From NCBI GenBank assembly GCA_013289265.1, contig JABDAH010000003.1:1-64000 (forward strand): a DNA stretch of 64,000 nt, written 5' to 3'. Shown piece by piece: positions 29,448 through 50,334 of the stretch. The DNA is from Alphaproteobacteria bacterium (GTDB lineage Bacteria > Pseudomonadota > Alphaproteobacteria > UBA9219). Each line of letters starts with the position of its first letter. Position 1 is the first letter of the stretch. The position numbers and the translations under genes were made by a program. The notes beneath the pieces were generated by a model, which saw nothing but the letters and a program-made list of their open reading frames with translations, did no database searches and was not told the DNA's origin.

Positions 29448-30113
29448 TTAGAAGCTCTGTGCGAACCTGTAACCAGCCGTCGTTGAAGGCATATTGATTA
29501 GAGCCAAACCACAGCTTGTACCCGTTACCGTTGTATCACCGGCGTTAACGCAAGTACCAGTACCCTGCACCACAGCTGCATAGAGGGTACCGCCGGGGTT
29601 CGAGCAAACTGGCGGAGCACCTGCCGTAGGGCATGAAAGTACCGAATTGAGGGCAATCGCATGAGCGCCGGTATCCGCGAAAACACCACCAATCATGTGG
29701 GCTGCCGCCGCAATACCTGCGATCAGATTCTTGCCATCCTGACTGTTTTGAATAGTCGGGTAATCTAACACGATGTTGGTACCACTAATCTTAGCCGTAA
29801 CACCGGTTGAGGCAACAGTGAGTTTACCAGTCGGTATAGCAACAGCCGTTACAGGCGCCGCAGAACCGGCAGCACCGGTACAACCCGTTGCAGAGCAGGC
29901 TGCGCGAACAGAAGCAACGTAGTTACCCATATCGCCACTGATCTTTGAGGCGTAGGCGCTGGCATAAACGCTCGATGCAGCAGTCCATACGGCACCGAGG
30001 ATCAAACCGATGATACCGAGAACGATAGCGATTTCTGTCAGCGTGAAGCCGCGTTTTTTCTTGTTCGGCGTCGCCGATAATTCGGCAGTCTCTAAGCTTT
30101 TATCCGAGGTCAT
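29448..30113 (-). CDS. Type IV prepilin-like protein 1 (probable major pilin, PilS-like)
   Basis: A 221-residue prepilin. A polar leader of about 22 residues ends in KKKRG, followed by the hydrophobic helix FTLTEIAIVLGIIGLILGAVW with glutamate at mature position 5. The long leader and the large mature protein suit the type IVb class, like PilS of IncI plasmids. The start has GGGAGAG upstream. A strong terminator follows and a 212-base gap precedes it, so this pilin could be expressed from its own promoter at a high level, as expected for the major subunit. The C-terminal part holds cysteines (TCVNAG, TSCGL) that could form the D-loop disulfide. Confidence 0.85.
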   Translation of the reverse strand: MTSDKSLETAELSATPNKKKRGFTLTEIAIVLGIIGLILGAVWTAASSVYASAYASKISGDMGNYVASVRAACSATGCTGAAGSAAPVTAVAIPTGKLTVASTGVTAKISGTNIVLDYPTIQNSQDGKNLIAGIAAAAHMIGGVFADTGAHAIALNSVLSCPTAGAPPVCSNPGGTLYAAVVQGTGTCVNAGDTTVTGTSCGLALINMPSTTAGYRFAQSF

Positions 30114-30325
30114 TAGTTCTCTCCCTGAGTAGTTTGACCGATTAAACTTGATGCGTGAATATACAGGGATAATTATTAAGGTGAAGTAAAGAAGAAACCG
30201 GTTTTTCTTATATAAGACGCAAATGTATTGGTGTCGTAACGAATAGTTTGGTTAATAATTTACTACAACATTTCGAATGTGTAACAAATTTTATCTATCT
30301 CTCATCACACCGCTGAAATTAAAGC
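30114..30325. other. Gap upstream of the first pilin gene
   Basis: About 210 bases of AT-rich sequence without an open frame worth calling. It probably holds the promoter of the 29448-30113 pilin; no confident -35/-10 or sigma-54 pattern is evident. Confidence 0.4.
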
Positions 30326-31069
30326 CTAATTTATTGTCGGCAAGCGTAGCTGATAAACAAGGCGCAGGATATTTCTGGAATTCGACAAACTGCAGTGCGC
30401 GCTCATATCTTTTGCAGTAACGGGCAGAACCCTAGTCGGCGGCGCAGCGCCGCAACCGCTACCTTCCAGAATATTACAACCATTGATGTTGACATCGTAG
30501 ATACCTGCGGGCGCAGCAGGCCCCGACAATTTTGCAGTAAGCTGGACGCAAGCATCAACTGAGATATTACGTATATCAACCGCAAAAAGCTGAGTACTGC
30601 CGGCGGGCGGCGTGGCACAGTTTTGTGCTTTGCAAGAAGTTTGAGGCGGGGTTGAACTTAAATCCCAATCACAAACACGAAAAGTGCCATTGGGGTCTAT
30701 GGCATTACCGCCAGAAGGATCCGCTTTACCCCATGGCGTGTCCGCACATCGATTGTTACAGTTTCTGCAGGTGTTAGCGATCGGCAGACGTTCCATATCC
30801 GCAGGAATAATGTTTTCCTGAATAAAACTCGCCGACAAACCATTCAGGCCCAGTCTGGGGATTCCCAACCTTCCGGCATATCCGCCACGTACATTATTGA
30901 CGACAGTGATGGTTTCTTCATAAGCACGTTGAGTGCGCACATTGTCATAGATGATAGTTGATATCTGCCATATCGCGCCCAAAGTAATACCCGCAACGCC
31001 CAGAACGAGAGCAAGCTCCATTAAATTATAGCCGAGACGCCGCTTTTTAGTTTTGCAAAGCAAATTCAA
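30326..31069 (-). CDS. Type IV prepilin-like protein 2
   Basis: A 247-residue protein with a short basic leader (KKRRLG) and an N-methylation type helix YNLMELALVLGVAGITLGAIW, glutamate at mature position 5. The usual Phe at +1 is Tyr. The body is unusually cysteine-rich (TCRNCNNRC, VCDW, SCKAQNC, DACV, GCNI, GCG, HCS), so several disulfides are likely. A DTPW block and a VDACVQL block recur in the third and fourth family members, so these are paralogues. It overlaps the next upstream gene by 23 bases. Probably a minor pilin. Confidence 0.8.
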   Translation of the reverse strand: MNLLCKTKKRRLGYNLMELALVLGVAGITLGAIWQISTIIYDNVRTQRAYEETITVVNNVRGGYAGRLGIPRLGLNGLSASFIQENIIPADMERLPIANTCRNCNNRCADTPWGKADPSGGNAIDPNGTFRVCDWDLSSTPPQTSCKAQNCATPPAGSTQLFAVDIRNISVDACVQLTAKLSGPAAPAGIYDVNINGCNILEGSGCGAAPPTRVLPVTAKDMSAHCSLSNSRNILRLVYQLRLPTIN

Positions 31070-31721
31070 GATCTACCTCGTTTAAAGTATTTCCGCACCA
31101 TATCTGAGCTTGTTTATATGTCAAAGGAAGCGGGACCGCTGCATTTTGCGAAACACCTTTTTTAATGACGATACTCGTACCTGCAGCCATACCTTGAGTT
31201 CCTGCACGCAAGAAACCAATCACATCACTGTTGAGGGGTAAGGATACAAGCAAATCTGTACAGTCTGTTGGACTGATGCCCTGTAATACGAGCCGAAAGG
31301 AGTTGTTTGGTCTGCCTGTCACAATATTATCTTCTGCAAACACGTAAAAAGATCCACCGGTTACAGTACCGCGATTGAGATCATGATCCATCGGGGTATT
31401 ACCGGCTCCAAGAGAAGGCGCGCGCCGCATTTCAACTGGCAGTGTCGTTGCTTTATCCATCAGACGAGTGATATCGACAGGCGGTGTTCCAACACCAATA
31501 TCCGACCATTTCTGGATTTTATAGCCGTAATAGTCACGAATTCCCTGCACTGCTTCAACGATCTGCTGATTGGTACGACTGACATGATAACTGCCCCATA
31601 CCGTCGTGCCGACGGTCCAGAGGAACCCTATTAAAAGGCCGATAACAGCAAAAATGATGGCAAGCTCAGTTAAAGTGAAGCCCGCCTGTTTTTTATTATT
31701 ATATTTTGAGAAAGAGTTCAT
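31047..31721 (-). CDS. Type IV prepilin-like protein 3
   Basis: A 224-residue prepilin: leader ending in KKQAG, then FTLTELAIIFAVIGLLIGFLW with glutamate at position 5. The mature body has the family's C-terminal PTDCTDLLVSL block and two further cysteines. The length is similar to its neighbours. Gene order and overlap with prepilin 2 show a cotranscribed minor pilin set. Confidence 0.82.
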   Translation of the reverse strand: MNSFSKYNNKKQAGFTLTELAIIFAVIGLLIGFLWTVGTTVWGSYHVSRTNQQIVEAVQGIRDYYGYKIQKWSDIGVGTPPVDITRLMDKATTLPVEMRRAPSLGAGNTPMDHDLNRGTVTGGSFYVFAEDNIVTGRPNNSFRLVLQGISPTDCTDLLVSLPLNSDVIGFLRAGTQGMAAGTSIVIKKGVSQNAAVPLPLTYKQAQIWCGNTLNEVDLEFALQN

Positions 31722-31739
31722 TTTATTTATCAGACCCCG

Positions 31740-32402
31740 TCACATCGAGCTGCCGAGATTGTAATACCAGTCAAGGGTAGAAATTGACCCAGCCAGGCAT
31801 GCTGCATTGATAGCAACTACCGACATAGGCAACGGCATTGCCAAATTGCCATCAAGGCCCACCGGGTTGCCATTGATATCTATTCGTTTCAATCCTGTTG
31901 TGGGACCCGGCAAAGAATTATGAGTAAGAAGATCGACGCAAGCATCTGATGGCACGTTACTATAACGGACAATAAATTGTACCGGGTTTCCGCTGCTACC
32001 TACCAGGGAAATTTGGGCCGTTCCGGTGCAAATCCCCACGTCCTTATTCCAGGGCGTATTAACAGTTGTATTCGCACAGGCCGCTGAAGGATCCGTTACC
32101 ATATCAGAAGGAAATATACCTTGCTGAAGATACTGCTGGCTATAAGTTGTAAAATTAGGTGTCGCGGGTGGCGACAGGGCCGCAAAGCTGGTTTGCCTAC
32201 CTGTGTACATAGAACGCATATTAATGGCTATCTGGCCTAAATCTTCGCCTGCCCTATTGAGTTTTGATTTATAAGAAACGGCTGAAGCAACCTCAAATAT
32301 GATCCCTACCAGCGTTCCAATAACGCCTAACACAATAGCGATTTCGGCCAGGCTGAGACCCGACCTGCGGTTGAGGTGTTTTGAGGGATGAGGCCAAGAC
32401 AT
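31740..32402 (-). CDS. Type IV prepilin-like protein 4
   Basis: A 220-residue prepilin: leader ending in RRSG, then LSLAEIAIVLGVIGTLVGIIFEV with glutamate at position 5 and Leu in place of Phe at +1. It shares the NTPWNK block with prepilin 2 and SDACVDLL with prepilins 2 and 3. It is the first of the pilin genes after the GspF-like gene, with an 83-base gap. Confidence 0.8.
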   Translation of the reverse strand: MSWPHPSKHLNRRSGLSLAEIAIVLGVIGTLVGIIFEVASAVSYKSKLNRAGEDLGQIAINMRSMYTGRQTSFAALSPPATPNFTTYSQQYLQQGIFPSDMVTDPSAACANTTVNTPWNKDVGICTGTAQISLVGSSGNPVQFIVRYSNVPSDACVDLLTHNSLPGPTTGLKRIDINGNPVGLDGNLAMPLPMSVVAINAACLAGSISTLDWYYNLGSSM

Positions 32403-32485
32403 GCCGAACGGAACTCCACAATTTATTTATGTGGTCTTAAGCTTACTAAAAATTGGTTAAAATATTTCCTATGTCCAAATGTAGG

Positions 32486-33583
32486 CTAATTCATGCCGCC
32501 GCCTGGTTTTGCCAGTTCGCTGACAACGCCGAAAATAGCCATCATGGCCCAGGCAATGATGCCTCCGACAACAGCCATACCAGCATTGCGGGAAATGGCA
32601 GCTTGGGTTTTCATGGATAAAATTTGTTCGTTGATCCATTCATGCGTAACCTGTTCGATAACAGACCCAACGTCAGCGCGTTCGGACAGAATTTCAAGAT
32701 CGACCGCCACCATAGGGTCAGGAAAATTATATTTTCCAATACGCAGGGCTTCACCCAGATTGCGGCCACGCAAAACTTCCTGACGCGCGGCACTCACACG
32801 TTCGCGCATCCAGGGATTGCTTTGCTCCTCCAAAATTTCCAAAGCGCGCTTCAAGGGAACCTGCGCCCCGAGAAGAGCAGAAAGTCCGAGCATAAAACCG
32901 CTTCCCTGCAAAACACGGTACCAGGACCAGGGCGGATACATGTCCATCTTTGCCCTGAGAGGGCCACGCCAGTAAGGCAATGTGGCACCGATAACAATAC
33001 CAACAACGATTACAAAAATGATAAAGGTCAGGCCCCAATCATTTAGCATATCCGAAACAGGAACCAGACTGCCCATGGCAGCGATAACATTCGCCGGCGC
33101 GCTTTTACGCATATTGGCGATCATGTTAACGCCGAAGCTCCATAGAACGAAACTAACCAGCGCCAACATGGCAAAAGGATAACTGACGGCATGTAAAACC
33201 GCATCCTTCATCTGCTTGCCTTTTTCGCCAAGCGTTTGAATAGAGTGCAGAGATTTAGCCATCGTACCGGATTCTTCACCTGCGCGTATCATGTAAAGCT
33301 CGCCGGTCGGCACCCAGCCTTCCATGGCTTCCGACAAGGTAACGCCTGAACGGTCTTTCAAGAACCAGTCGCGCAGCGCCACGGCCGCAGGGCGTTTAGG
33401 ATATTTGCCCATTTCCGATGTGTTGAGATAAAGCCGGTCAAGGCTGCGCGACAAAGCTTCGTTCATACGCAACATGCCTTCAAGTTTGCGATAAATTCTG
33501 TAACGATGTTTCTTGCTCGTACGAAACTGAAATTTCGTCAACCAGCGCTCGAAATCTTCCAGATTAAAATTGGAATCACTCAT
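32486..33583 (-). CDS. Type IVb pilus inner membrane platform protein (PilR/GspF family)
   Basis: A 365-residue inner membrane protein of the GspF/PilC/PilR class. Two similar halves (about residues 60-185 and 250-350) carry the GspF pattern (SLHSIQTLGEKGKQMKDAV; GAQVPLKRALEILEEQSNP), with hydrophobic segments at about 138-160, 190-210 and 340-358. It anchors the assembly ATPase at the membrane. Its ATG overlaps the ATPase stop by four bases. Confidence 0.9.
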   Translation of the reverse strand: MSDSNFNLEDFERWLTKFQFRTSKKHRYRIYRKLEGMLRMNEALSRSLDRLYLNTSEMGKYPKRPAAVALRDWFLKDRSGVTLSEAMEGWVPTGELYMIRAGEESGTMAKSLHSIQTLGEKGKQMKDAVLHAVSYPFAMLALVSFVLWSFGVNMIANMRKSAPANVIAAMGSLVPVSDMLNDWGLTFIIFVIVVGIVIGATLPYWRGPLRAKMDMYPPWSWYRVLQGSGFMLGLSALLGAQVPLKRALEILEEQSNPWMRERVSAARQEVLRGRNLGEALRIGKYNFPDPMVAVDLEILSERADVGSVIEQVTHEWINEQILSMKTQAAISRNAGMAVVGGIIAWAMMAIFGVVSELAKPGGGMN

Positions 33584-35520
33584 GGCATTGCCCCTAATTT
33601 TTGTTCCACTTCAGCCAGTTCACGATCTGCTGAAAAAGGACCCAACTCAAATTCGGCATCATCTGGTGAAACTTCGCCGCGACGCACTTTCTCCAAACCA
33701 TGCCACAGCATGGTAATCCCGTTTAGGCCAACAGGCGACAGCCAGTAAAGGCGCGCGTCTTCCATACGGTTATCGTGGAGCAATTCCATAATTTTGGCAT
33801 CGGTCTCAATAACTTCAGCGCAAATCGTACGGCCCGCGCGGCCCTTGTAGCATTTGGAACATCCTTCCGGATTGGCGTAATAAACATTGCTCAGATCGGG
33901 CTCAGATAACCTTTCCATATGCGGCGTAGCAACGTCGGCCTTGTTACGCATAGCATCCATAACAGCAAGCCCCGCGCGTACGCGCCGGTTATAATCTTTA
34001 TACTGAGGCCCCAGTTCTTTAGGGGCATCCACCATCGAAATACGGCAGTTCTTGCACATGCCGCGCAGCAAACGCTGACAGATCATGCCGCGCACAAGAT
34101 GATGGTCATAGACCATGTAAGGCTCAATCCCGATATCACGCAAACGCATCGGTGTCGCAAGCGCTGAATAAACGTGGCCGGTCGTATAAACCTGACGTCC
34201 TGTCAGCGCCAAACGGAAACAAAATTTGGCCGTTTGCATATCGCGAATTTCGCCAAGCATGACGATGTCGGGATCAAGGCGCAAAGCGCAACGCATGATT
34301 TCTACGAATGTCTTTTCACGCTGCTCGTCTTTAACTGACGCCGAGACGCCGATCTGACGGGCGCCGATAATGCCGCCTTCAGGCGGATCTTCGACCATCA
34401 GGCAATTAAGCTGCATATTGGTTTCAGACATACGGCGGTTTAGCGTCACACGCAGTGTTGTGGTTTTACCCTGATTAACGGGGCCAGAGAAAATACGCAT
34501 CCCGCCCGGAAGGGCGCGCAGGCTTTGAACAACCTTCAATTGCTCTTGAGAAAAACCAAGAGAATCCACATCCGCCATTACAAAATTTTCGCCGAACAAG
34601 GCAGCAGAGTCATACTGAAGCCGCATATCAAGATAGCGGCCCTCATTAGCGAGTGGCACCCATTGGCAGCGCACGCTGATAATGCCTTTAGGCAAGGCTA
34701 TGGTATCACGGCCCTTGGCATCTGATGTCAACATCGCCGCTTGCGGTTCGGACCAATTCGCCGTTGATCCTGACTGGCCTATCGAGTGAGAATAAACCGC
34801 CGCCAGGAATTGCTCACCCTCGCGTTGCGTCCAGGTTTCCCAGATACGCAAGGCGCCGTCGATACGAAACTCGACACGTGTTCTGTTGTTGACCGCTTCG
34901 ATATGGATGTCATTGGCGTTGGCTTCAACTGCTTTTTGTAAAGTCTCAACGATTTTGCGACGAACGGCATTATCATCAAACTGGCCGGAGATCGTCTGAC
35001 GATCGGCATACAAATAAGCCTGGCTGATGATATTGGGGGTTACGTATCGCGGCTCATCGACCCGGAAGCCCTGGCGCTTGGCCGCTAGCGCAACCGAAGT
35101 AACAAGCGGGGAACGACGATGCGAAGCGCTGACAAGCCACAGACCAGAATCAAACAAGGCACATAAATTACGGGATTCATCGGGAATTTTTAGGGGACCG
35201 CCTTCAACAGTTAAAACCATTCCGCCGAAAGCAAGCGAGGAGCCCGCCATCGCCATACTGCGTTCATCTTCAATTTTGATGGCGTCTTGTTTCTGTGGCG
35301 GGTTTTCTGCGGCGTTCTTAGCAGCTTCTTTTGCGGCATTTTTTCTGGCAGCCTCAACAGCCGGGTCCTTAGCGTCCGCCGATGTTAAGGAGGGCGGTGT
35401 TTGACTGCGCGCCGTAGCTGGGGCTAAAGGAGTTGCCTTCGGCTCTGTTTTTTTAGGCGGCGATTTGGGGGCTCTTAATGCGCGTAGCTTTTCGCCCAAT
35501 TGTGAAATAGGATTTTGCAA
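33580..35520 (-). CDS. Type IVb pilus assembly ATPase (PilQ/GspE family)
   Basis: A 646-residue secretion ATPase. A basic, Ala/Lys/Pro-rich N-terminal tail (1-90) is followed by an N-terminal domain and the ATPase domain (about 195-590). Walker A reads GPVNQGKTTT (about 348-357) instead of the common GPTGSGKTTT but keeps G-x4-GKT; Walker B is MLGEIRD, and the Asp box and His box are present. A tetracysteine zinc motif (CKNC ... CSKC) is typical of GspE. It drives pilus assembly. The apparent start is TTG 35520, without a clear ribosome site, so a later start is possible. Confidence 0.9.
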   Translation of the reverse strand: MQNPISQLGEKLRALRAPKSPPKKTEPKATPLAPATARSQTPPSLTSADAKDPAVEAARKNAAKEAAKNAAENPPQKQDAIKIEDERSMAMAGSSLAFGGMVLTVEGGPLKIPDESRNLCALFDSGLWLVSASHRRSPLVTSVALAAKRQGFRVDEPRYVTPNIISQAYLYADRQTISGQFDDNAVRRKIVETLQKAVEANANDIHIEAVNNRTRVEFRIDGALRIWETWTQREGEQFLAAVYSHSIGQSGSTANWSEPQAAMLTSDAKGRDTIALPKGIISVRCQWVPLANEGRYLDMRLQYDSAALFGENFVMADVDSLGFSQEQLKVVQSLRALPGGMRIFSGPVNQGKTTTLRVTLNRRMSETNMQLNCLMVEDPPEGGIIGARQIGVSASVKDEQREKTFVEIMRCALRLDPDIVMLGEIRDMQTAKFCFRLALTGRQVYTTGHVYSALATPMRLRDIGIEPYMVYDHHLVRGMICQRLLRGMCKNCRISMVDAPKELGPQYKDYNRRVRAGLAVMDAMRNKADVATPHMERLSEPDLSNVYYANPEGCSKCYKGRAGRTICAEVIETDAKIMELLHDNRMEDARLYWLSPVGLNGITMLWHGLEKVRRGEVSPDDAEFELGPFSADRELAEVEQKLGAMP

Positions 35521-35577: not shown

Positions 35578-36432
35578 TTAGGGAGTATTGTTAAACACAG
35601 CCTGCACATTCTTGACATGCAGCACATGCTTGACATTATTCTGATGTAACTCAACGCCTGAGGATGTAATAGCCGTCACCGTAGCACCCTCAAGCTGATC
35701 ACCAACCTGTACGGTTTTTGTTTGTGCATCGCCGGTCTTGATAATCGCGCTGAAGCGCCCACTACTACCGACAATACGCTGAACTTCCAAATTACTGAAA
35801 GAAGACATTGGCGTAGGCATCGGCATCGCACGTTGCGAAAAAGAAGATGATATTGGGGAGGGCAAAGGCATAGGCAACGCTTGCATCGGCATTTGATTTG
35901 CCTGCCTTAAAGCACTGGCGGGAATGGCTCCTGAAAGAGAAGGTCCGCCGCCTTCACGCTCGTTGCGGATTTTATCAAGCTCGTTCAAATGCTTTTCAAG
36001 ATCAATCAACGCCTCAATCTTGGCGATGGCCTGATGCGCACTGTTGAGATCATCCAGTGTCATAGCTTCAGTGGCGCTTAACCGTTTGGCGACACCTTTA
36101 GCGGAATCCGCAATTTTGTCCTCAGCACCACTAATGGTTTTTGGCCCCTTGCTCTCTTTTTCAGCAGCGGGGGTCGCGGCAGCGGCAATTGTTGGGTCAG
36201 GATTTGTCGAAGGGGCAACTATCTTGGGCGCTGCATCTACAACAGGTGCAGCAGTCGAAGAAGCTGGAGCTGCTGTAGCCGTAGTTGAATCCGCAACCGG
36301 ACTTGGGGCTGTTGCTGGTGGTAGAGCCGTTTGGCCATAAGCAGCAGGTATCTGGGTTGCCATTCCGCCAAAAAATACGGAAAGTGCAATGAGCATCAAA
36401 GGGCGTAAGTCCATTTTATGTACGGTTTTCAT
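35578..36432 (-). CDS. Type IVb pilus protein PilP-like
   Basis: A 284-residue exported protein: signal peptide (about 1-34), a long Ala/Pro/Thr-rich stretch (35-95), a helical region (120-165) and a C-terminal small beta domain (about 225-280: KTVQVGDQLEGATVTAITSSGVEL, then KHVLHVKNV). The C-terminal part matches the PilP pattern, which links the inner membrane complex to the secretin. The start overlaps the PilO2-like stop by 17 bases. Confidence 0.75.
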   Translation of the reverse strand: MKTVHKMDLRPLMLIALSVFFGGMATQIPAAYGQTALPPATAPSPVADSTTATAAPASSTAAPVVDAAPKIVAPSTNPDPTIAAAATPAAEKESKGPKTISGAEDKIADSAKGVAKRLSATEAMTLDDLNSAHQAIAKIEALIDLEKHLNELDKIRNEREGGGPSLSGAIPASALRQANQMPMQALPMPLPSPISSSFSQRAMPMPTPMSSFSNLEVQRIVGSSGRFSAIIKTGDAQTKTVQVGDQLEGATVTAITSSGVELHQNNVKHVLHVKNVQAVFNNTP

Positions 36433-39381: not shown

Positions 39382-39395
39382 CGGAAAACTCCGCA

Positions 39396-40825: not shown

Positions 40826-40836
40826 CGAACCTGCGC

Positions 40837-42039: not shown

Positions 42040-42923
42040 GCATCGCTCCGCGGAATCAGCGCCGATGGGCCCGTGATGGTCACGCCCTTGTCGCCGATAC
42101 GCATTTCCTGACCGCCGCCCGTAATCCCGCGATCGTCAGCCAGCGCGTAAGGCGGCGAGATCATTCCCTGTGCCAGCAGTTCGCGGTAACGGATCATGCC
42201 AACATAATCGCTAGTCAGGCGGTCAAGATCGGCTTCGAAAGTTTCTTCAGCTTGCTTCACGCCAGCCTCCCAACCTTCTTTGATGTAAGCGCGCCATGCG
42301 GCACGTTCTTCATCATCCTTCGGTAACAACAAACCAGGCGGCGGATCGACCCGGCCCCAGTCACGTTCCAGATACAAATGCCAGTTGCGCGGCGCGGTTA
42401 CAATGCGGGCAACACGGTTGATACGGTAAATGCGGTCGGCGACGGCAGCGGCCTGACCACCAGCATTCACGAGCACGGCACGTTGCGCTTCGGATACAAC
42501 GGGTGGCTCAATCAGCAAGCCTGATGGTGCTGCAATCAACAACCGCGCAAAGCTGTAAGTCTTGTTCATGCTGATGTCATATTCAGCAAGGCGGCGCTGG
42601 ATTTCAAAAGTGCGGTATGCAAGGCCGCCGCGGGCGCCGTAAGAAAGCGCAGCTTCGCGCAAAGCATCGCTGCGGATTTTCAGGCCTAGCTGGTCGGATT
42701 TAATCTCATCGCCGTTCGAAGCTTGCTCTTGCAGATCGCGCATCACGGGCGGTGGTGGCGATGGGCCGTTATCGGTTTGCTCCGAACTGGACGGCGAAAA
42801 TGGCGGCCCCGCAGGCGTATCACTAGCCACCGCTACTGGAGGTAAAGCCAGCAGTGCGGCAAGGCAGACAGTGGCACTGTAAAAACGCACAGCCTTTGAT
42901 GCGGTAAAACTATTTAATTTCAT
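42018..42923 (-). CDS. dotC: Dot/Icm-type secretion protein DotC/TraI
   Basis: A 301-residue exported protein: signal peptide (about 1-34), a short Ser/Pro-rich stretch, then the DotC domain (65-290) with RSDALREAALSYGARGGLAYRT, SFARLLIAAPSGLLIEPPVV and NWHLYLERDW. In Legionella DotC is an outer-membrane lipoprotein that with DotD positions DotH. A lipobox cysteine is not evident here; the signal ends AVASD, a difference worth noting. Overlaps DotD by 14 bases. Confidence 0.9.
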   Translation of the reverse strand: MKLNSFTASKAVRFYSATVCLAALLALPPVAVASDTPAGPPFSPSSSEQTDNGPSPPPPVMRDLQEQASNGDEIKSDQLGLKIRSDALREAALSYGARGGLAYRTFEIQRRLAEYDISMNKTYSFARLLIAAPSGLLIEPPVVSEAQRAVLVNAGGQAAAVADRIYRINRVARIVTAPRNWHLYLERDWGRVDPPPGLLLPKDDEERAAWRAYIKEGWEAGVKQAEETFEADLDRLTSDYVGMIRYRELLAQGMISPPYALADDRGITGGGQEMRIGDKGVTITGPSALIPRSDAWTPATR

Positions 42924-43455
42924 TGGCGCGAATTTCGTGAGAATTCATCACAGGCGTAGCAGGTACGGATTGATCTGCGGCGGAGTAACGTATTTCGACG
43001 TAGCCGCCTGCGCCGTCAACCGACATATCAGCGCGGTGCCCGGCCTGCAAACCGATATCGCGCAGAACATGGATGATGGGCTGCTGATAGGCATCGACAA
43101 TAACCGTCAGCGGTACGGGAGGCAGATTACCCTTTACCCGGAAACGAAGCCCCGCTTTTTCCGCCAAGGCTTTTGTCACCTGTTCGATAGGTCCGGACCA
43201 GCGGATCGTCACAGGCTGCATCAGATTGGCTGGCACATTGCTGTAATCTTCGGCAGGCGGCGGTGTGGGGCTGCATTGCTGTTCGATGCCGACAATAGTG
43301 TCCAGCGCCTTGGAGGCTTTGTCGGCTGCCAGAGATAATTTGACCGTGACGATATCCGGCTCTGCCGCTACCGGCATAACCATTGTTTGTCCGTCAGCAC
43401 AACCCGCCAGCAAGGCAAGGCTTCCGCAGAAAAGGAGGAGTTTGGATCTTGTCAT
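42910..43455 (-). CDS. dotD: Dot/Icm-type lipoprotein DotD/TraH
   Basis: A lipoprotein of 181 residues with a clear lipobox (LLAGC at about residue 18). The C-terminal domain (about 85-165) has the DotD/TraH pattern: a helix (IEQVTKALAEKAGLRF), a PPVPLTVIVDAYQQPIIHVLRDIGLQAG core and VEIRYSA strands, resembling a secretin N0 fold. I take ATG 43455 over 43479. DotD recruits DotH with DotC to the outer membrane ring. This gene begins the dotD-dotC-dotB-icmT order shared with IncI traH-I-J-K. Confidence 0.88.
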   Translation of the reverse strand: MTRSKLLLFCGSLALLAGCADGQTMVMPVAAEPDIVTVKLSLAADKASKALDTIVGIEQQCSPTPPPAEDYSNVPANLMQPVTIRWSGPIEQVTKALAEKAGLRFRVKGNLPPVPLTVIVDAYQQPIIHVLRDIGLQAGHRADMSVDGAGGYVEIRYSAADQSVPATPVMNSHEIRANEIK

Positions 43456-43546
43456 GGTCACCACGTGATCATCAGCCAATAGTTAAAGACAGAATTTCTT
43501 ATACAACGAATCATTTCCATAAACTTAAGGAGATTTTACGCCCCTG

Positions 43547-43831
43547 TCATCTAGCCTTCAGAAACTGAACGGCAAAACCAAGAAAGCAGACGGCGGGCAA
43601 TAAGACCAGCCCCCCGGTAAACCACCGCCCCGTCAGCAGAAAATAAAGGGCTACGACAAATAAACCGCTGGCAGCTATGCCGTAAACAACCGAAGCTGCC
43701 GGTAATGTCGCGTGCGGAACGGGGGTAGAGATTAAAGGCGTGATTTGCCCCTCTACCCGCTTGACCGGCAACGTATTACCCTTCACCGCAGGCGGCGCTT
43801 GAGGCAGGATTTTTTCCAGCCATCCCGCCAT
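43547..43831 (-). CDS. Small membrane protein in the secretion locus
   Basis: 94 residues with two hydrophobic segments (about 45-65 and 68-88) after a polar N-terminal part. No family recognised. Its start overlaps the stop of the DsbC-like gene by one base, so it is part of the same operon and presumably a membrane accessory of the machine. Confidence 0.6.
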   Translation of the reverse strand: MAGWLEKILPQAPPAVKGNTLPVKRVEGQITPLISTPVPHATLPAASVVYGIAASGLFVVALYFLLTGRWFTGGLVLLPAVCFLGFAVQFLKAR

Positions 43832-44730
43832 TAAGGCACCAGATCGGTAAGGATAGCGGAGACTTTCTCAGGTTCGCCCGCAACAATCTTTACCTTGCCG
43901 TCCTTGCCGCGATAAACCATGTAGGGCGTCTGATTGATTTTCCAGTTATCGATCAAGGTATGATTGGCACGCAGCGCCGCAATAGTTGGGGCGTCAGGAA
44001 CGCCAGCCAGTTGGGCTTTATCGCCGGCAACATATTTATCCCATGCAGTCATTGGGTCGGCGGCATGCAGCAGCTGCCCTCCGGCGCGTTCATTATCGCT
44101 GTCCGGCGCTGCGATCGGGATCATGCGCAACTGCACGGTATTTTTCATAACGGCATCGCGCAGGACGCGCCATGTCGCCTGGCAATGCGGGCAATTGACA
44201 TCCATCACCATCAGGATCTGCGGCTTGCCGCTACCCAAGGTCACGCCGCTGGCAGCGGATAGTTCCTGATACAGCCGTTCGCCGGGCGAAAGGGAAACGG
44301 TAGGCATCGGGGCTGCGGGCGCAGCAGCAACTGCAGCTGGCGGCGCCACTGGCGTTCCAACCTGATTAATTGATTGCTGTTCTCGGGAAGCGTTCTCCAT
44401 CAAAGCGGCGACTTCCTTATTGCTATCCAGCAAAGCTTTGACTTGAACGCTGCTGATGCTCTCGCCGTTCTCACCGAACATGGCGCCAATCAAAACCGCT
44501 TTTTTATCAGCAGTGCTGTAGGCGATTTGGACGCGGCCATCCTTGACGATAAACCAGCCATCAAGCCCGTCGCGCGTACCCAGATAATACATCTTGGCGC
44601 CCATCTTGATGATGTTGGCAAGAATAGGATTGGCGGCAGGATCGGGCGTTGTTGCCGCAGCTTCTGCCAGCGTTACAGTCGATGCCAGTAAAACCAGAAC
44701 CAGCAATGTTTTTTGAACGAAGGATTTCAT
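43831..44730 (-). CDS. DsbC-like periplasmic thiol-disulfide oxidoreductase
   Basis: A 299-residue exported protein (signal peptide about 1-24, ending AEA). The C-terminal thioredoxin-fold domain (from about residue 145) carries the active-site motif CPHC in MVMDVNCPHCQATWRVLRDAV, preceded by a helical linker as in DsbC/DsbG. A cis-Pro position is present in NQTPYMVYRGKDG. It probably isomerises disulfides of exported proteins; several Cys-containing exported proteins (47.7-49.8 kb) and prepilins (30.3-32.4 kb) of the same locus are likely clients. Confidence 0.88.
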   Translation of the reverse strand: MKSFVQKTLLVLVLLASTVTLAEAAATTPDPAANPILANIIKMGAKMYYLGTRDGLDGWFIVKDGRVQIAYSTADKKAVLIGAMFGENGESISSVQVKALLDSNKEVAALMENASREQQSINQVGTPVAPPAAVAAAPAAPMPTVSLSPGERLYQELSAASGVTLGSGKPQILMVMDVNCPHCQATWRVLRDAVMKNTVQLRMIPIAAPDSDNERAGGQLLHAADPMTAWDKYVAGDKAQLAGVPDAPTIAALRANHTLIDNWKINQTPYMVYRGKDGKVKIVAGEPEKVSAILTDLVP

Positions 44731-44772: not shown

Positions 44773-45222
44773 TTACCGTTGCGCATATTCGTAATAATGC
44801 AACGGCGCGTCATGTTTCACCAGACCCTTGTGATCCATCGCGGAAACAACACGGTTGGCGTAACGCGAACCCTCGCCGGGTGTTGCTGAATGATAGTAAG
44901 CAATACCGCGGTAATAGCTGCCGGTTTCGGCAATTTTCTGTTTTAAAATCCACGCAGCGACATGGACATTGACACAGCCATCGTCGCGCAGCCAGACATG
45001 GGCTGTGCGTTCATTGACGTGCCAGAGCTTGGCCAGTTGTGGCACCCAACGCGTATTGACCTGCATAGGACCCAGATCATAGGTACCGTTGAAATTTGGC
45101 CCGGCGGCTTGGCCAATATGACCGCCTTCAACCTGCATGATGCCGATCATGATCGCAGGCGGCACCTGATAGGTGTTCGATGCCAGCATCAAACAGGCGG
45201 CAAGAGCTTGGGCGGTTAGCAT
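44773..45222 (-). CDS. Lytic transglycosylase-like (SLT-type) protein
   Basis: About 149 residues with a signal segment (MLTAQALAACLMLA) and an SLT-fold catalytic region: IGIMQVEGGHIGQAAG (catalytic Glu), YDLGPMQVNTRWVPQL, and AAWILKQK...YYRGIAYYHSATPGEGSRYANRV. The long frame up to 45393 is excluded because AAAGG lies upstream of ATG 45222 and the upstream residues are unlike a protein N-terminus. Such enzymes open the cell wall for secretion or pilus machines, like VirB1 and PilT of IncI. Confidence 0.85.
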   Translation of the reverse strand: MLTAQALAACLMLASNTYQVPPAIMIGIMQVEGGHIGQAAGPNFNGTYDLGPMQVNTRWVPQLAKLWHVNERTAHVWLRDDGCVNVHVAAWILKQKIAETGSYYRGIAYYHSATPGEGSRYANRVVSAMDHKGLVKHDAPLHYYEYAQR

Positions 45223-45235
45223 GCGGATACCTTTA

Positions 45236-46093
45236 TCATGACTGCCATCCTTCGCCGTCAAGCTGCGCAGAGCTCGGCACTTCCAGGTAAGTCGCCAGCG
45301 TCGCCAGCATGGCCATGCGTTGATTGAATGCCTGCCAGACCTGCGCCATCGGTACAATCTGCCCGTGCTGCGCAAAGTAAGCGGCGCGGTCATCCGGGTT
45401 CATATAAAGCAGGCGGTCGGCTTCGGCATAATGCGATTCCGTATAGATCTGGCCCGATGCTTTTAGCACGTTCCAGCATAGCAACCGCCATTGTTCCGGC
45501 GTACAGCCTGCAGGCGCCAGCGCGCGCGTCACTTGATCAGCGGTTTTAATCAGCTTTTCCGCTACTTCTGCCAGCAGACCATGTTCGGCGCGGCCAAAGG
45601 AATATTGCGCAATAGCGCCTACGACAGGCACCATGGCTTCCATCATCTTCGCGCGAAATGTCGCCACCGTATTGGGGATCGGCTCGTTACCCGCAGGAAT
45701 CTGCGCCTTAAACTTGCTCTGCAATTCAATTGCGATGCTGGATAATTTCTGCGCCTGCTCCGGCGGCAAAGGCTGGCCCGTTGCCTTGAAATGCGCGGCG
45801 ACAACCTGACTGGCGGCACCCGCCAGCGACCAGCGTACCCAGGCGTCCAGCTGATCTTCTTCCGCGCCCAGTTGCGAGGCAAGTTCACGGCTTAAATTGA
45901 CGGTGCTGTCGATTAGCGCACTGAATTGTTCTGAATTGGCGCCTGCTGAAGGTTTGCCTTCGCCCGCAGCTGCGTTGGAAGCTTCGGTCAAAGCCGTCAA
46001 CAAAGGCATGCCCACCTGACGGAAAGTCAAAAGCAGTGTCTGCATCCGCGCTTGCGATGCTGCATCCCGGTTTTGCTGAGGTCCATCGGCCAT
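45236..46093 (-). CDS. Protein of unknown function in the secretion locus
   Basis: A 285-residue helical, soluble protein without signal peptide. It contains long amphipathic helices (LLLTFRQVGMPLLTALTEA; FRAKMMEAMVPVVGAIAQYSF) and two cysteines. I do not recognise a family. Its stop is 13 bases from the transglycosylase start, so it is probably a cytoplasmic component or regulator of the same machine. Confidence 0.6.
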   Translation of the reverse strand: MADGPQQNRDAASQARMQTLLLTFRQVGMPLLTALTEASNAAAGEGKPSAGANSEQFSALIDSTVNLSRELASQLGAEEDQLDAWVRWSLAGAASQVVAAHFKATGQPLPPEQAQKLSSIAIELQSKFKAQIPAGNEPIPNTVATFRAKMMEAMVPVVGAIAQYSFGRAEHGLLAEVAEKLIKTADQVTRALAPAGCTPEQWRLLCWNVLKASGQIYTESHYAEADRLLYMNPDDRAAYFAQHGQIVPMAQVWQAFNQRMAMLATLATYLEVPSSAQLDGEGWQS

Positions 46094-46257
46094 TAAAAAA
46101 CCATCGAAAACAAAAGGTTAACCTGTGAGGCCCACTGCCAACCTTGATTATTAGCAAAAAATGCTTGTCGGATTGCTAATAAACCAAAATTACCCGAGGG
46201 CAAACTGGCTTTTACCATGCCCGAATAATGGTTAACAGATGGTAGAGAGTGATAAAA

Positions 46258-47580
46258 TCAGAATTTAGGGCTCGCCGGCTTAAGGCCGGGGCTGGCGGCG
46301 GGTTGCGCTTTTGCCGCAGCCGCTTGCTGTTGTGCAATGAGCCCCGGACTTTCTTTGCTTCCCGGTGGGCAATCAGGCCGACCGTCAAACCCGTCAACAA
46401 GGCTGGTTCTAAGCCCCGGCTCAAAAAATGAGTTGGTAAATCTGGTTGCCATACGTGCAGCAATCAGACCACTTATAATATCGGGTTTTAAAGCATCAGG
46501 TATTTCGCGTTGGCCGCCTGGACCGGTCGCTTCACGGCGACCGGGATCCCTTGTTTCATATTGCTGGCCGCGCGGATCATACCAAGCGCTGTGGTAATCA
46601 TTATGTGGTCCGCTAAAATTATCCACCCGCACGGATTTAACATCCACACCAAGCGAAAGTGGCAATGGATCTTTTTTAAAGAGCGCCGCAATAAAATTGT
46701 CGATCTTTTCCAGCCGCATGCCAGTCGGGCTTAGTTCCATATGGAGATATCGTGAATCAGAGCTGCCAATTTGGTCGATAGTCTCCGGGTGCACAAGATA
46801 CGTTTTATTACCGACCTGAGCTATGACCCCACTTCCATTCGGTAATGGAATGACGGCCCTATAGTCTGGATTGATGCCACCTACCGGTGGGCCGCCTTCA
46901 CCATTCGTCAAATTTCTGACGATCGTATCAAAGGCAAAACTAATAGCTTTTCTTTCTTTATCGAGAAGTTTGTTATCGTCATCCGTCAATGACTGGCCGC
47001 TGGTCAAATCCAATATCTTGTCGCCACGCGATTTAAATTCCACCATTCCTACATGGGATACGCCGTCAGGAGTTTGCCAGACTTTAGACGATGAGGAACT
47101 CAGTTTCAGAATATCGCCGCCATGTTCCTGCTCGGCCAACTGGCGCACATCCGCCGAATAGAGTTTTGTGTTGCTATCGTAATGCAGGATAACTTCGAAA
47201 GTTTCGCGCGTCGCAATATGGCCTTGCACATTCACAAGCTGGACAAAATTGGGCTGTTCCGTACCCCCCACACCCGCCCAGTTTCTGGAAAGCTTGCCGC
47301 CATTTTCATAGCTATACATTATGCCTGGATGATCAATATTACCGTCCGACATAAGGCTGCCTGCCAGAACACCACCACGCGCCGTTACCTGTACCTGCGG
47401 TGGTGGCGAGTCAGATGTAACGACAGGCGCCGATTGTGATTGCACGGCAGCAGAATCTGGAACCGAGCCGGGAGGCGACAAATCTTTAACCTGAACGTCC
47501 TGAGCGCCTGCGTTTGATGCCGCAATCCCGGCAAGAGCCGCAGCAGCAGTTATTGAGCGTAAACTTGGGTTTCCGGCCAT
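46258..47580 (-). CDS. Exported protein of unknown function
   Basis: A 440-residue protein with an N-terminal signal (SITAAAALAGIAASNAGAQ) and Pro/Ser-rich stretches at both ends (30-60 and 415-438). The middle (about 90-350) has beta-rich segments (NFVQLVNVQGHIATRETFEVILHYD; DGVSHVGMVEFKS; VIAQVGNKTYLVHPETI). No family recognised. It is transcribed with the secretion locus, though 112 bases separate it from the 47693 gene and 164 from the 45236 gene. Confidence 0.6.
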   Translation of the reverse strand: MAGNPSLRSITAAAALAGIAASNAGAQDVQVKDLSPPGSVPDSAAVQSQSAPVVTSDSPPPQVQVTARGGVLAGSLMSDGNIDHPGIMYSYENGGKLSRNWAGVGGTEQPNFVQLVNVQGHIATRETFEVILHYDSNTKLYSADVRQLAEQEHGGDILKLSSSSSKVWQTPDGVSHVGMVEFKSRGDKILDLTSGQSLTDDDNKLLDKERKAISFAFDTIVRNLTNGEGGPPVGGINPDYRAVIPLPNGSGVIAQVGNKTYLVHPETIDQIGSSDSRYLHMELSPTGMRLEKIDNFIAALFKKDPLPLSLGVDVKSVRVDNFSGPHNDYHSAWYDPRGQQYETRDPGRREATGPGGQREIPDALKPDIISGLIAARMATRFTNSFFEPGLRTSLVDGFDGRPDCPPGSKESPGLIAQQQAAAAKAQPAASPGLKPASPKF

Positions 47581-47692
47581 AATTCATCCTGCTTTTTAAA
47601 TCGTTATTTCGGTTAACACTCTACCATAAAACAATAGTTTCACCAAGAAATCTGCGGGCGCTCAACAATCAAACCATTGAATTTATTAATAC

Positions 47693-48577
47693 TTATGGCC
47701 CTACAGGTTTGGCAGATTGGTTGACCTCCTGCCCCAATCCACGCATCTGGAACAAGGTTTGGATAGCGATAAGTATGCCTTCGCGTTCCCGGTCCATTTT
47801 AGCTTCAAAAGCATCCTTCGCATGCTGGCATTCAAATTGAACCGTAAGCTCAATCAGCGATGATTTTCCGTTCAAGATCGCAGGAAGATTTTTGACATAT
47901 TTTTCACTGTCGCAGCGATGCGCCAGAATCTTGTCATACATTGCGGGGCTTAATCCCCACTGGTCACAATCAATCAAGGCTTTGTCAGCCTCGTCGCTGC
48001 CATCAGGGGTGATGCGGTCAATACCTAGTCCGCCCGCACCCGGAGGCTTTTTCAGATAATTGCACATTCTCGCCTGCATATCATGGCAGCTGGGTGTTGC
48101 ACCTACAGCTGCAATATTCGGATTATTTGCAGGGCAAGCCGTCCGGTACGAAACAGCGGCCAGACATTCTTCCAAGGCGGCAGAACGGGCGGCAACATTG
48201 TTCATGTTATCCGTCAAAGCAACGATATCGGCCGTTGTTTCCTGAGTTGTCGAAGTATGCGGCGGCGCAGGGAATTTAGGCACGAGCCGTTGGCAGAAGC
48301 TGTAAGCCGCAACGTAACGCACTTCATCTTTCCACGGCGTCGCAGGTGTGGGAACGGCGTCTTTAAAATTCAGATAGTGATCTGATGTTTCTGCAATACG
48401 AGCAGCGGGGATCGGATATTGCATATGATTTAAAACGCTGGATAAAAGTAAGTCTGCATCAGCATAAGTGTCGTCCGCATGGGTAGGAGCTGTAAACGTC
48501 ACCCAAAGTGACAGGCAGGCAAAAACGAGAAGAAGTTTTTGTCTTGTATTTGTTGTTTGAGATTTGTGCATAATCAT
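47693..48577 (-). CDS. Exported cysteine-rich protein of unknown function
   Basis: A 294-residue protein with a signal peptide (about 12-34, ending THA). The mature part has about eight cysteines, many evenly spaced (FCQRL, ECLAAV, ACPAN, SCHDMQ, MCNYLKK, DCDQW, RCDS, ECQH), and is largely helical at the end (AFEAKMDREREGILIAIQTLF). This suggests a disulfide-stabilised periplasmic or surface protein, likely handled by the DsbC-like enzyme of the locus. It shares a four-base overlap with the upstream gene. Confidence 0.65.
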   Translation of the reverse strand: MIMHKSQTTNTRQKLLLVFACLSLWVTFTAPTHADDTYADADLLLSSVLNHMQYPIPAARIAETSDHYLNFKDAVPTPATPWKDEVRYVAAYSFCQRLVPKFPAPPHTSTTQETTADIVALTDNMNNVAARSAALEECLAAVSYRTACPANNPNIAAVGATPSCHDMQARMCNYLKKPPGAGGLGIDRITPDGSDEADKALIDCDQWGLSPAMYDKILAHRCDSEKYVKNLPAILNGKSSLIELTVQFECQHAKDAFEAKMDREREGILIAIQTLFQMRGLGQEVNQSAKPVGP

Positions 48578-49188
48578 AAATGTTGCCTACAGTTTTTGAC
48601 AGCCGTGTCGCCCAGAGCGCCGTATGGACCGGTATTGCTAACGGGGATAAAGCTCCAATTCACGCCAACCCTGCGGCATATTTCGCCGGCAGCACCAGCA
48701 GCGCCCCCACCGACCGCCTTACTGCCTTTGCCGCTATCAGAGCTAAGCCTGCCCATAGAACTTGTTAAATTTCCAGTTGCTGCTTGCGCGCCATTCCTTG
48801 AAGCACCGGCATAAACCGTGCATGCAACCGCCGATGTCGGGGACACGGCTGCGTCCGCATTCACCTGCGATATAGGTATTGCGAAGCTATTGCGATCCTC
48901 TTGATCAACTACCGCCTGATTTGCGCCATTAATGACTTGTTGCTGTCCTTTTAAAGACAGTTGAATATCGCCGTGTAAAGTCTCAAGTGCCCCTTTGGCA
49001 CGTTGAAGGACCGAATTTGGTCCATATGCTAAGCCGTAAAGAGGGTTATCAATACCATCGTCATAGGCCCACACCTGCGCTTTTGCGGGACTCGTAACAA
49101 AGAGAATAGCGCATAAAAAGAACAATGCAAATATAGATACCACATGTTTCGATCTGTTACTTATAGATGTATAAATAATTTTTATCAT
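48574..49188 (-). CDS. Exported protein of unknown function
   Basis: A 204-residue protein with a strong signal peptide (HVVSIFALFFLCAILFVTSPAKAQ). The mature part is rich in Ala, Gly and Gln, with three cysteines (ACTV, EICRR, KNCRQ). The segment LSLKGQQQVINGANQAVVDQEDRNSF looks like a helical stretch. No family recognised. It is coupled by short overlaps on both sides to two other exported proteins, which supports a common multi-subunit function. Confidence 0.6.
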   Translation of the reverse strand: MIKIIYTSISNRSKHVVSIFALFFLCAILFVTSPAKAQVWAYDDGIDNPLYGLAYGPNSVLQRAKGALETLHGDIQLSLKGQQQVINGANQAVVDQEDRNSFAIPISQVNADAAVSPTSAVACTVYAGASRNGAQAATGNLTSSMGRLSSDSGKGSKAVGGGAAGAAGEICRRVGVNWSFIPVSNTGPYGALGDTAVKNCRQHL

Positions 49189-49781
49189 AGTGGATCACGC
49201 CCCAAAAATTGCCAGGTAGAAATGTTCGGCGAATTAGTTGTGTTCGGTGTGAAAATCGCATTGGGCGGTAATAGACTGGTACCATTACACGGAATATGCG
49301 GCAGATGTAAATTAATGTTGGGACCGGAAAATCCCAAACTTGGTAAAGGTATACAGGCAAAATTCTGTATACTTTCCGCAAAATCGGTCACCTGATTGAT
49401 GACTGAATTGATACTGGAAAGTGCAGCGGCACATATCGCATCCGCCGCATTAATAACATAGTTCCAGAATGCGGCATCGAGCGCGCTTTCAACAAACCCG
49501 AGCGGGTCATGCATGCCGCGGCTAAGGCCAAACATGGCGTTTATGCCGTCAAGGCAGGAAAAAGCGTCAGTCCGAATTTTGGAGAACGCATTATGGATGC
49601 CGAAAATTCTGTCTGTCTGGGCTTGAACCTGAATATTCATGTTTTGCACATAATCCTGCGAAAACTGGCTAGCTGCAGTGCAATCGGGCGCAGTTGCTGG
49701 CGCAACCGCCCAAGAAGTATGTGGCGCCACGAATAAAAAGAGACAGAGCAAAACGAGGAAGAAACTGTTATTTTTGAACAT
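49185..49781 (-). CDS. Exported cysteine-containing protein of unknown function
   Basis: About 198 residues, start taken at ATG 49781 (GAGGGAAG upstream; the frame extends to 49802). A signal peptide ends near TSWA. Five cysteines lie in the mature part (DCTAA, SCLDG, ICAAA, FACIP, IPCNG), and a helical stretch with hydrophobic face (AADAICAAALSSINSVINQVTDF) lies in the middle. Its neighbours are exported proteins. It might be a pilus tip or surface adhesin component, but this is a guess. Confidence 0.6.
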   Translation of the reverse strand: MFKNNSFFLVLLCLFLFVAPHTSWAVAPATAPDCTAASQFSQDYVQNMNIQVQAQTDRIFGIHNAFSKIRTDAFSCLDGINAMFGLSRGMHDPLGFVESALDAAFWNYVINAADAICAAALSSINSVINQVTDFAESIQNFACIPLPSLGFSGPNINLHLPHIPCNGTSLLPPNAIFTPNTTNSPNISTWQFLGRDPL

Positions 49782-49803
49782 AGATTGCTTCCCTCTGCGC
49801 ATA

Positions 49804-50334
49804 TCAATACCCAGCCTGATAGAGTTTCGACAAATCCGATGTTTTAAGCGGGCCTGCCTGTAAAATATCCAAACGCCGCTGCGTTCGCTGCATTTGCATT
49901 TGCGCTTCCGCCAATGCCGACGTTTGACGTTGCTTCATCATCGCAAGCATTTGCTGATTTTGTTGCGCGTTGGGGCCGGACGCAAGCATAGTCTGGATTT
50001 GTTGCGATTGGTTGAGAGCATCCTGCATGGATGTGATATTTCTTTTTTCCATTTGGATCAGCTGCACTTGCAGAGCGGACGATATATATCCGCTTGACGC
50101 CTGCTGTGGCTGTATTGATTGCGCCGATTTTTGCAACATGTCATCGAGCGGGGTCGAAGGTACCGGCGGCACTTTGGCCTGAGTATCCGCCTGCGGCGCA
50201 GCTTTATCTGTTGCCGGCTTGGCAGCGGGGGCAGCCGTTTTTGAATTGGTTTGCGGCAGCAAAACATTTTGCGCGGAGGCCGCCATCGGCAGCAGGGCCA
50301 TTGCTAAAGGCAAAATGAACAGACGGAGTTTCAT
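49804..50334 (-). CDS. Exported coiled-coil protein of unknown function
   Basis: A 176-residue protein. The signal peptide is MKLRLFILPLAMALLPMAASAQ, followed by an Ala/Pro/Lys-rich linker (25-60) and a Gln/Met-rich helical segment (about 85-165) with heptad-like spacing. The pattern resembles short VirB5-like or chaperone-type helical proteins but no family is secure. It is the first gene of the locus on the minus strand, so a promoter should lie between 50335 and 50460. Confidence 0.6.
   Translation of the reverse strand: MKLRLFILPLAMALLPMAASAQNVLLPQTNSKTAAPAAKPATDKAAPQADTQAKVPPVPSTPLDDMLQKSAQSIQPQQASSGYISSALQVQLIQMEKRNITSMQDALNQSQQIQTMLASGPNAQQNQQMLAMMKQRQTSALAEAQMQMQRTQRRLDILQAGPLKTSDLSKLYQAGY

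What the first reader, a model, noticed from the sequence alone, without database searches (positions are those of the whole stretch)
29448..50334. Type IVb pilus and Dot/Icm core genes joined in one chromosomal locus
Seen: on one strand and with many short overlaps, dotD-dotC-dotB-icmT run into pilL-pilN-pilO2-pilP-pilQ-pilR and four prepilin-like genes. Known: IncI plasmids such as R64 carry the same two modules (traH-I-J-K and pilL-S), and Legionella has only the Dot/Icm part. Inference: this is a machine of I-type origin in which thin pilus and secretion core are directly linked, perhaps used for cell contact, effector delivery or predation. Housekeeping genes lie on one side and flagellar genes on the other, so it looks chromosomal rather than plasmid-borne.
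Basis: partly seen in the sequence, partly recalled or inferred. Interest (0 to 1): 0.72.

Follow-up and report, generated by a model that had tools for sequence, protein, structure and literature searches.

The report
Chromosomal Dot/Icm machine with pilus genes
A little-known group of Alphaproteobacteria, and its relative Micavibrio that feeds on other bacteria, carry in their chromosome a Legionella-type protein-injection machine (here fused to the genes for a gripping pilus), although the published genome analysis of Micavibrio says it has no such system.

Summary
At 29448-50334 (- strand) DotD, DotC, DotB and IcmT are followed by PilL-N-O2-P-Q-R and four class III prepilins; profile searches place all four small genes in the named families. 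The gene order recurs in every relative of the order whose locus was read in full. The rest of the machine lies elsewhere: the incomplete (64%) own genome has DotO and DotA on other contigs, a same-genus genome has DotI/H/G/F-like and DotL, and better genomes of the order have DotI-H-G-F-N-O-M-L near the window's block. No relaxase is linked, base composition does not stand out, queuosine and flagellar genes flank it. So it is an old chromosomal I-type type IV secretion system with a type IVb pilus, not an integrated IncI plasmid.

The larger result: DotH is in 132 of 142 genomes of the order that holds Micavibrio, including M. aeruginosavorus ARL-13 (identified by exact genome length). That predator carries DotI-H-G-O, PilL, DotL and DotA (strain EPB also read for DotB-C-D, IcmT, DotM and three tandem DotA), but no PilO2; its 2011 genome paper reports no type III or IV secretion. 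A 2022 paper noted pT4SSi in seven marine Micavibrionales. Protein delivery into touched cells is likely; bacterial prey as target is untested.

The parts
29448..32402 (-). four class III prepilin-like genes (29448-30113, 30326-31069, 31047-31721, 31740-32402); the last matches PilS
   Evidence: PF07963 for 29448 and 31047, PF08805 PilS E 4e-7 for 31740; G-x4-E prepilin motif in all four
32486..33583 (-). PilR, inner-membrane platform protein
   Evidence: PF00482 E 6.9e-24; phmmer with R64 PilR E 2.7e-36
33580..35520 (-). PilQ, pilus assembly ATPase (Walker A GPVNQGKT)
   Evidence: PF00437 E 2.5e-54; R64 PilQ E 5.9e-43; motif
35578..36432 (-). PilP
   Evidence: TIGR03021 31.2 bits, cut-off 34.65; R64 PilP E 3.5e-4; position
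36416..37654 (-). PilO2
   Evidence: PF06864 E 5.4e-21
37654..39396 (-). PilN, R64-type secretin lipoprotein (lipobox LAAC)
   Evidence: TIGR02520 E 4e-72; lipobox
39396..40385 (-). PilL with C-terminal TcpQ domain
   Evidence: PF10671 E 6.3e-15; ortholog kept beside IcmT in Micavibrionaceae without PilO2
40556..40840 (-). IcmT/TraK (VirB3-like inner-membrane protein)
   Evidence: NF038220 E 6.7e-26, above cut-off
40837..42039 (-). DotB ATPase (Walker A GPTGSGKS)
   Evidence: TIGR02524 406 bits; PDB chain 6geb (DotB) 367 bits; Legionella adelaidensis DotB 48% identity
42018..42923 (-). DotC, no lipobox found
   Evidence: PF16932 E 1.7e-73; PDB 6x62 DotC E 4.9e-39
42910..43479 (-). DotD lipoprotein; likely start ATG 43455, lipobox LAGC
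   Evidence: PF16816 E 2.6e-25, NF033882 E 2.5e-24
43547..43831 (-). small membrane protein conserved in the order (cluster c21)
   Evidence: jackhmmer hits in six relatives of the order
43831..44730 (-). DsbG-like thioredoxin, counterpart of R64 TrbB
   Evidence: NF008657 E 4.1e-25; ortholog in G002 hit by R64 TrbB; cluster c10 labelled TrbB
44773..45393 (-). lytic transglycosylase, counterpart of R64 PilT / TrbN
   Evidence: PF01464 E 4.2e-5, NF010463 E 1e-18; R64 PilT E 3e-6
45236..46093 (-). helical protein found in the loci of both orders, no known family; start 46045 also possible
   Evidence: alignment A4; AlphaFold pLDDT 78.5, no PDB fold match with E <= 0.001
46258..50334 (-). five genes without library match (46258, 47693, 48574, 49185, 49804); 47693 and 49185 have divergent, sometimes multi-copy relatives at the same place in other genomes

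Best explanation
The locus is the DotD-DotC-DotB-IcmT plus type IVb pilus half of a vertically inherited, chromosomal I-type (MPF_I, Dot/Icm-like) type IV secretion system that no longer serves conjugation. Shown: the gene families, conserved order, the remaining components elsewhere in the own genome (DotO, DotA) and in relatives (DotI, H, G, F-like, N, M, L), and absence of a linked relaxase. Inferred: the PilN-PilS pilus contacts and holds a neighbouring cell; DotD (lipoprotein), DotC and DotH form the outer-membrane ring; DotG/DotF/DotI/IcmT/DotA form the inner part; DotB and DotO power it; the DotL-DotM-DotN coupling complex selects proteins, which are passed into the contacted cell. The target is either bacterial prey, as the Micavibrio lifestyle suggests, or a protist.
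For: Family identity of every core gene in the window. Same order in six relatives of the order and partly in three other families. Other components found: DotA at own C1:38753-41338, DotO at own C18:29599-31659, cut by the contig end; DotH in 29 of 33 genomes of the order, one copy each; DotL in 39 of 41 genomes; DotM (PF23127 E 3.3e-48), DotN above cut-off and DotL in G025. No NikB-like relaxase in the own, same-genus and 19 further genomes of 41; where a relaxase occurs it is never within 35 kb of a system gene found here. DotB tree: Micavibrionales rows form one group (100/99); the window's order forms one with moderate support (84/92); both lie with other alphaproteobacterial rows (99/99), apart from R64 and a Pseudomonas plasmid. 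GC of the locus 0.516 against flanks of 0.502 and 0.514; neighbours are queuosine and flagellar genes. In the MacSyFinder scheme used in PMC9418006, I-type systems without a relaxase count as protein-secreting (pT4SSi).
Against: No substrate, effector or injection has been shown. DotM Arg196/197 and Arg217, which bind acidic Glu-rich effectors in Legionella (PMC5802825), are not conserved as Arg in G025 or M. aeruginosavorus; only Arg314 is. IcmS/IcmW chaperones were not searched for. In the own genome DotH and DotL were not found. A prepilin peptidase was not searched.
Confidence: 0.75

Rival explanations
1. It is an integrated IncI-like conjugative plasmid or ICE; the system moves DNA.
For: All MPF_I parts have R64 counterparts, including the thin pilus, TrbB-like and PilT-like proteins; many IncI-type plasmids encode the same two modules.
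Against: No NikB-like relaxase at the locus or in the own and nearest genomes; parts scattered over distant chromosomal loci; DotH and DotL mostly one copy per genome across two orders; DotB clearly nearer to Legionella DotB than to plasmid TraJ; no GC contrast; the only tRNA in the window is 26 kb away. MobA/L-type relaxases (PF03389) were not searched.
Confidence: 0.06
2. DotB/C/D and IcmT were borrowed by the pilus (DotB as retraction ATPase) and no secretion system is assembled.
For: DotB is related to PilT (TIGR01420, 233 bits) and sits in the pilus operon; DotH and DotL were not found in the own genome.
Against: In Micavibrionaceae DotB/C/D and IcmT persist beside DotI-H-G-O without PilO2; DotO and DotA are in the own genome; complete genomes of the order carry the rest.
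Confidence: 0.05
3. The same machine is aimed at protists (intracellular or epibiotic life) rather than bacterial prey.
For: Well-studied relaxase-free I-type systems (Legionella, Coxiella, Comchoano in PMC9418006) act on eukaryotic hosts; ten near-complete genomes of the window's family lack the IlvD/Edd domain, suggesting dependence on a partner.
Against: The best-known member of the neighbouring order, M. aeruginosavorus, feeds on bacteria (PMC3189940) and has the system. The ATP/ADP translocase search is uninformative because no control rang. Flagellar genes are present.
Confidence: 0.35
4. In this particular species the system is a decaying relic.
For: DotH and DotL are missing from the assembly, and DotO is seen only in part.
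Against: The assembly is 64% complete and DotO is cut by a contig end; the window's genes are open and overlapping; the same-genus genome has DotI-H-G-F-like and DotL.
Confidence: 0.06

Closest known systems
R64 / IncI1 conjugation system (MPF_I with thin type IVb pilus)
   Same: TraH-I-J-K = DotD-C-B-IcmT and PilL-N-O-P-Q-R-S close together, with TrbB- and PilT-like proteins; TraM, N, O, U, Y, TrbA and TrbC counterparts occur in relatives
   Different: plasmid-borne, with NikB relaxase, PilV with shufflon and excA; gene order differs (pil lies before traH in R64, after IcmT here); TraJ is distant (about 30% identity)
Legionella / Coxiella Dot/Icm (pT4SSi)
   Same: chromosomal; no linked NikB-like relaxase here; DotB closest to Legionella DotB (48%); DotL-DotM-DotN coupling set found in the order
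   Different: here type IVb pilus genes are fused to the dotDCB-icmT operon; DotC lacks a lipobox; several DotA paralogs in many genomes; Glu-binding DotM arginines not kept; IcmS/W not tested
pT4SSi reported in seven marine Micavibrionales (Needham et al. 2022, PMC9418006)
   Same: same kind of system and order as Micavibrio
   Different: noted there as a count in the text; pilus linkage, order-wide conservation, the cultured predator and DotA paralogs are not mentioned in the passages read
pYR4 of Yersinia ruckeri (PMC6232867)
   Same: pil and tra (TraH-I-J-K) regions together; authors suggest they are coupled
   Different: plasmid
Vampirovibrio chlorellavorus T4SS (PMC4451040)
   Same: T4SS proposed as a predator's injection machine
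   Different: VirB/D4-like (T-type), partly on plasmids, algal prey

Membership tests
I-type (MPF_I / type IVB) secretion system | DotB, DotC, DotD and IcmT of the Dot/TraH-K families | tested here: met
I-type (MPF_I / type IVB) secretion system | VirB4-type ATPase DotO/TraU in the same genome | tested here: met
   own C18:29599-31659, 1219 bits, cut by the contig end
I-type (MPF_I / type IVB) secretion system | DotA/TraY (VirB6-like) | tested here: met
   own C1:38753-41338
I-type (MPF_I / type IVB) secretion system | DotI, DotH, DotG ring and channel proteins | tested here: inconclusive
   DotH not found in the 64% complete own genome; present in the same-genus G001 together with DotI and DotG, and DotH in 29 of 33 genomes of the order
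protein-secreting pT4SSi | DotL/DotM/DotN coupling complex | tested here: inconclusive
   DotL absent from the own assembly, present in G001 and 38 other genomes; DotM and DotN in G025, DotM in M. aeruginosavorus EPB
protein-secreting pT4SSi | no relaxase with the system | tested here: met
   PF03432 none in own genome, none within 35 kb of the system genes found in 40 others; MobA/L family not tested
protein-secreting pT4SSi | translocates effector proteins | not testable with these tools
   no effector known; DotM Arg patch not conserved
R64-type type IVb pilus | PilL, PilN secretin, PilO2, PilP, PilQ, PilR, PilS-like prepilins | tested here: met
R64-type type IVb pilus | prepilin peptidase PilU and adhesin PilV/shufflon | not tested
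   neither was labelled by the R64 queries in the loci of the window's order; the whole genome was not searched for PF01478
IncI conjugative element | NikA/NikB relaxosome with the tra genes | tested here: not met
   no NikA or NikB hit in the loci; PF03432 absent from own genome

The most novel reading that the evidence does not exclude
In Micavibrio and its sister lineages a relaxase-free Dot/Icm system is the predation machine: it injects proteins into attached bacterial prey, with a type IVb pilus (window's order) or only its PilL subunit (Micavibrionaceae), and with several DotA paralogs forming a mixed stalk. It would be a type IVB system aimed at bacteria, in a predator published as lacking T4SS.
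Probability: 0.35. Interest if true: 0.87.

Novelty: new variant of a known kind. Interest (0 to 1): 0.64.

Why it matters
How epibiotic predators such as Micavibrio get into prey is open; the 2011 genome paper stated that no type III or IV system was present (PMC3189940). A near-complete Dot/Icm set in that species and in almost all genomes of its order gives a concrete, testable candidate, and shows that Dot/Icm machines without a linked relaxase are an old, general feature of these Alphaproteobacteria. The natural loss of the pilus with retention of PilL separates pilus from secretion functions.

Tried and rejected
R64 under accession AP005147 not held; NC_005014 used. ATP/ADP translocase search: control did not ring, so not used. 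IlvD: missing in part of family f1 and in M. aeruginosavorus but present in most other genomes that carry the system, so the system does not track this auxotrophy. Structure of the 49185 protein family: pLDDT 43.6, discarded. Structure of the 45236 protein: fair model but no PDB relative with E <= 0.001. First DotB tree with very long plasmid branches was unreliable, repeated without most of them. Two of the literature searches returned nothing, which is weak evidence because subscription papers and preprints are not held. Considered and rejected: integrated plasmid; pilus-only use of DotBCD.
Full report
What is there. The window is bases 1-64000 of contig C3 (100,410 bases) of an unnamed alphaproteobacterial metagenome assembly of 1.49 Mb, 63.6% complete. 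On the - strand, from 50334 down to 29448, run: five genes without library match, a helical protein, a lytic transglycosylase, a DsbG-like thioredoxin, a small membrane protein, DotD, DotC, DotB, IcmT, PilL, PilN, PilO2, PilP, PilQ, PilR and four prepilins, many with short overlaps. Profiles confirm the Dot/Icm and Pil names. DotB is nearer to Legionella DotB (48% identity; PDB 6geb, 367 bits) than to plasmid TraJ (about 30%).

Conservation. Relatives found by DotB similarity are alphaproteobacterial MAGs, several titled Micavibrio. In the window's own order (33 genomes held) DotC is found in 27 and DotH in 29, one copy each. In a class-wide sample DotC is rare: 14 of 387 genomes. The loci of G025, G024, G013, G002, G006 and G026 show the same order as the window. 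In G025, G024, G006 and G026 the same stretch also holds DotH, DotG, a DotF-like protein, TraQ-like proteins, DotN, DotO, DotM and DotL, with DotI labelled in all but G025 (names of these clusters from G025). G002 has DotI-H-G and part of the rest on the other side of the pilins, and in G013 DotH, DotG and the DotF-like gene lie about 25 kb away, separated by other genes. G130 and G230, of other families, carry DotD-C-B-IcmT-PilL-N-O-P-Q-R-S too.

Own genome. DotA is at C1:38753-41338. DotO is at C18:29599-31659, at the very end of that contig. DotH and DotL were not found, but the same-genus genome G001 has DotI, H, G, a DotF-like gene and DotL. Absence in a 64% assembly is weak evidence.

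Micavibrio. The order of G243 has DotH in 132 of 142 genomes, one each. Two of them are single contigs of 2,458,610 and 2,481,983 bases; the second is exactly the published length of M. aeruginosavorus ARL-13. The first matches the length I remember for strain EPB, so that name rests on memory and on the identical DotH score. The locus read in EPB holds DotO, the DotN/TraT-like gene, TraQ-like genes, a DotF-like gene, DotG, DotH and DotI, then a divergent flagellar block (FlgK and a flagellin-like gene by Pfam), then PilL, IcmT, DotB, DotC, DotD, the transglycosylase and the TrbB-like protein. For ARL-13 I read DotO through PilL directly; its DotL and DotA come from the genome searches, and its IcmT and DotB-C-D were not read. 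DotM and DotL lie together elsewhere in EPB, and three DotA paralogs (885, 920, 908 aa, 39-44% identical to each other) lie in tandem. [quoted passage not shown] Needham et al. 2022 mention pT4SSi in seven marine Micavibrionales (PMC9418006), so the presence in the order is not wholly new. PilO2 is missing in all ten f131 genomes tested, ARL-13 and EPB among them, but present in most of the window's order, in G130, G230 and G119, and in two outlying families of the Micavibrio order; PilL stays beside IcmT in the f131 loci read.

Origin and movement. No NikA/NikB-like protein was labelled in the loci. PF03432 relaxases occur in 20 of 41 genomes but never within 35 kb of the system genes located here (nearest on one contig about 37 kb, G432). 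The DotB tree groups the Micavibrionales rows firmly (100/99) and the rows of the window's order with moderate support (84/92); both sit among other alphaproteobacterial rows, apart from R64 and a Pseudomonas plasmid. Together with flat GC, queuosine genes on one side and flagellar genes on the other, and flagellar genes beside the system in M. aeruginosavorus as well, this fits long vertical inheritance in the chromosome.

How it likely works. Known roles of the families (from the literature and general knowledge; nomenclature in PMC12624023): DotD is the VirB7 counterpart, IcmT VirB3, DotO VirB4, DotI VirB8, DotH VirB9, DotA VirB6. The pilus would bring the target cell close, and DotL-DotM-DotN would recruit proteins for transfer. 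The acidic-effector patch of Legionella DotM is mostly not kept (only Arg314), so substrates probably carry another signal. Target cells are unknown; Micavibrio's lifestyle favours bacterial prey, the known pT4SSi favour eukaryotes.

Verdict. A real, chromosomal I-type system with linked pilus: a new variant of a known kind. Its value lies in its near-universal presence in a predator order whose best-studied species was said to lack it.

Noticed in passing
L205:5756-14208 (M. aeruginosavorus EPB); G375, G312, G161, G243 and others: Three tandem DotA (VirB6-like) paralogs, 39-44% identical in EPB; more than one DotA in many genomes of the window's order as well. Recalls the tandem VirB6 genes of Rickettsiales (from memory).
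   Followed up: partly
L138:9070-10497 and the f131 loci: PilL is kept next to IcmT in Micavibrionaceae that lack PilO2, which suggests that PilL also serves the secretion system.
   Followed up: partly
window 42018-42923 and relatives: DotC has a signal peptide but no clear lipobox in nearly all these lineages (G230 has one); in Legionella DotC is a lipoprotein (from memory).
   Followed up: no
L099:10632-11105 and cluster c23: A GcrA-like (cell-cycle regulator) protein sits beside DotI in six of the genomes read (weak Pfam match, below cut-off).
   Followed up: no
window 45236-46093 and alignment A4: Conserved all-helical protein next to the transglycosylase in the loci of both orders, with no known family and no fold match; may be a new component.
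   Followed up: partly
L204:6796-7284, L206:11855-12436, L096:19361-19834: A small protein with one likely membrane segment lies between DotM and DotL (or just upstream of DotL) in both orders; no library match where tested.
   Followed up: no
window 47693-48577, 49185-49802; L105:5159-6517; L109:389-1609: Divergent exported protein families at the operon's 5' end, multi-copy in G002 and G006, and fused to a transglycosylase domain in both.
   Followed up: partly
G028: A genome scored 100% complete lacks DotC, DotH and DotL but keeps DotA genes; loss of the system or one missing contig.
   Followed up: no
own C3:67966-70550 (outside the window): Two further genes, a 566 aa prepilin-like protein and its neighbour, resemble the pair that follows the pilins in G025 and G024; candidate minor pilin or tip protein.
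   Followed up: no
The IlvD/Edd domain is absent from M. aeruginosavorus and from ten near-complete genomes of the window's family, hinting at amino-acid dependence on a partner there.
   Followed up: partly
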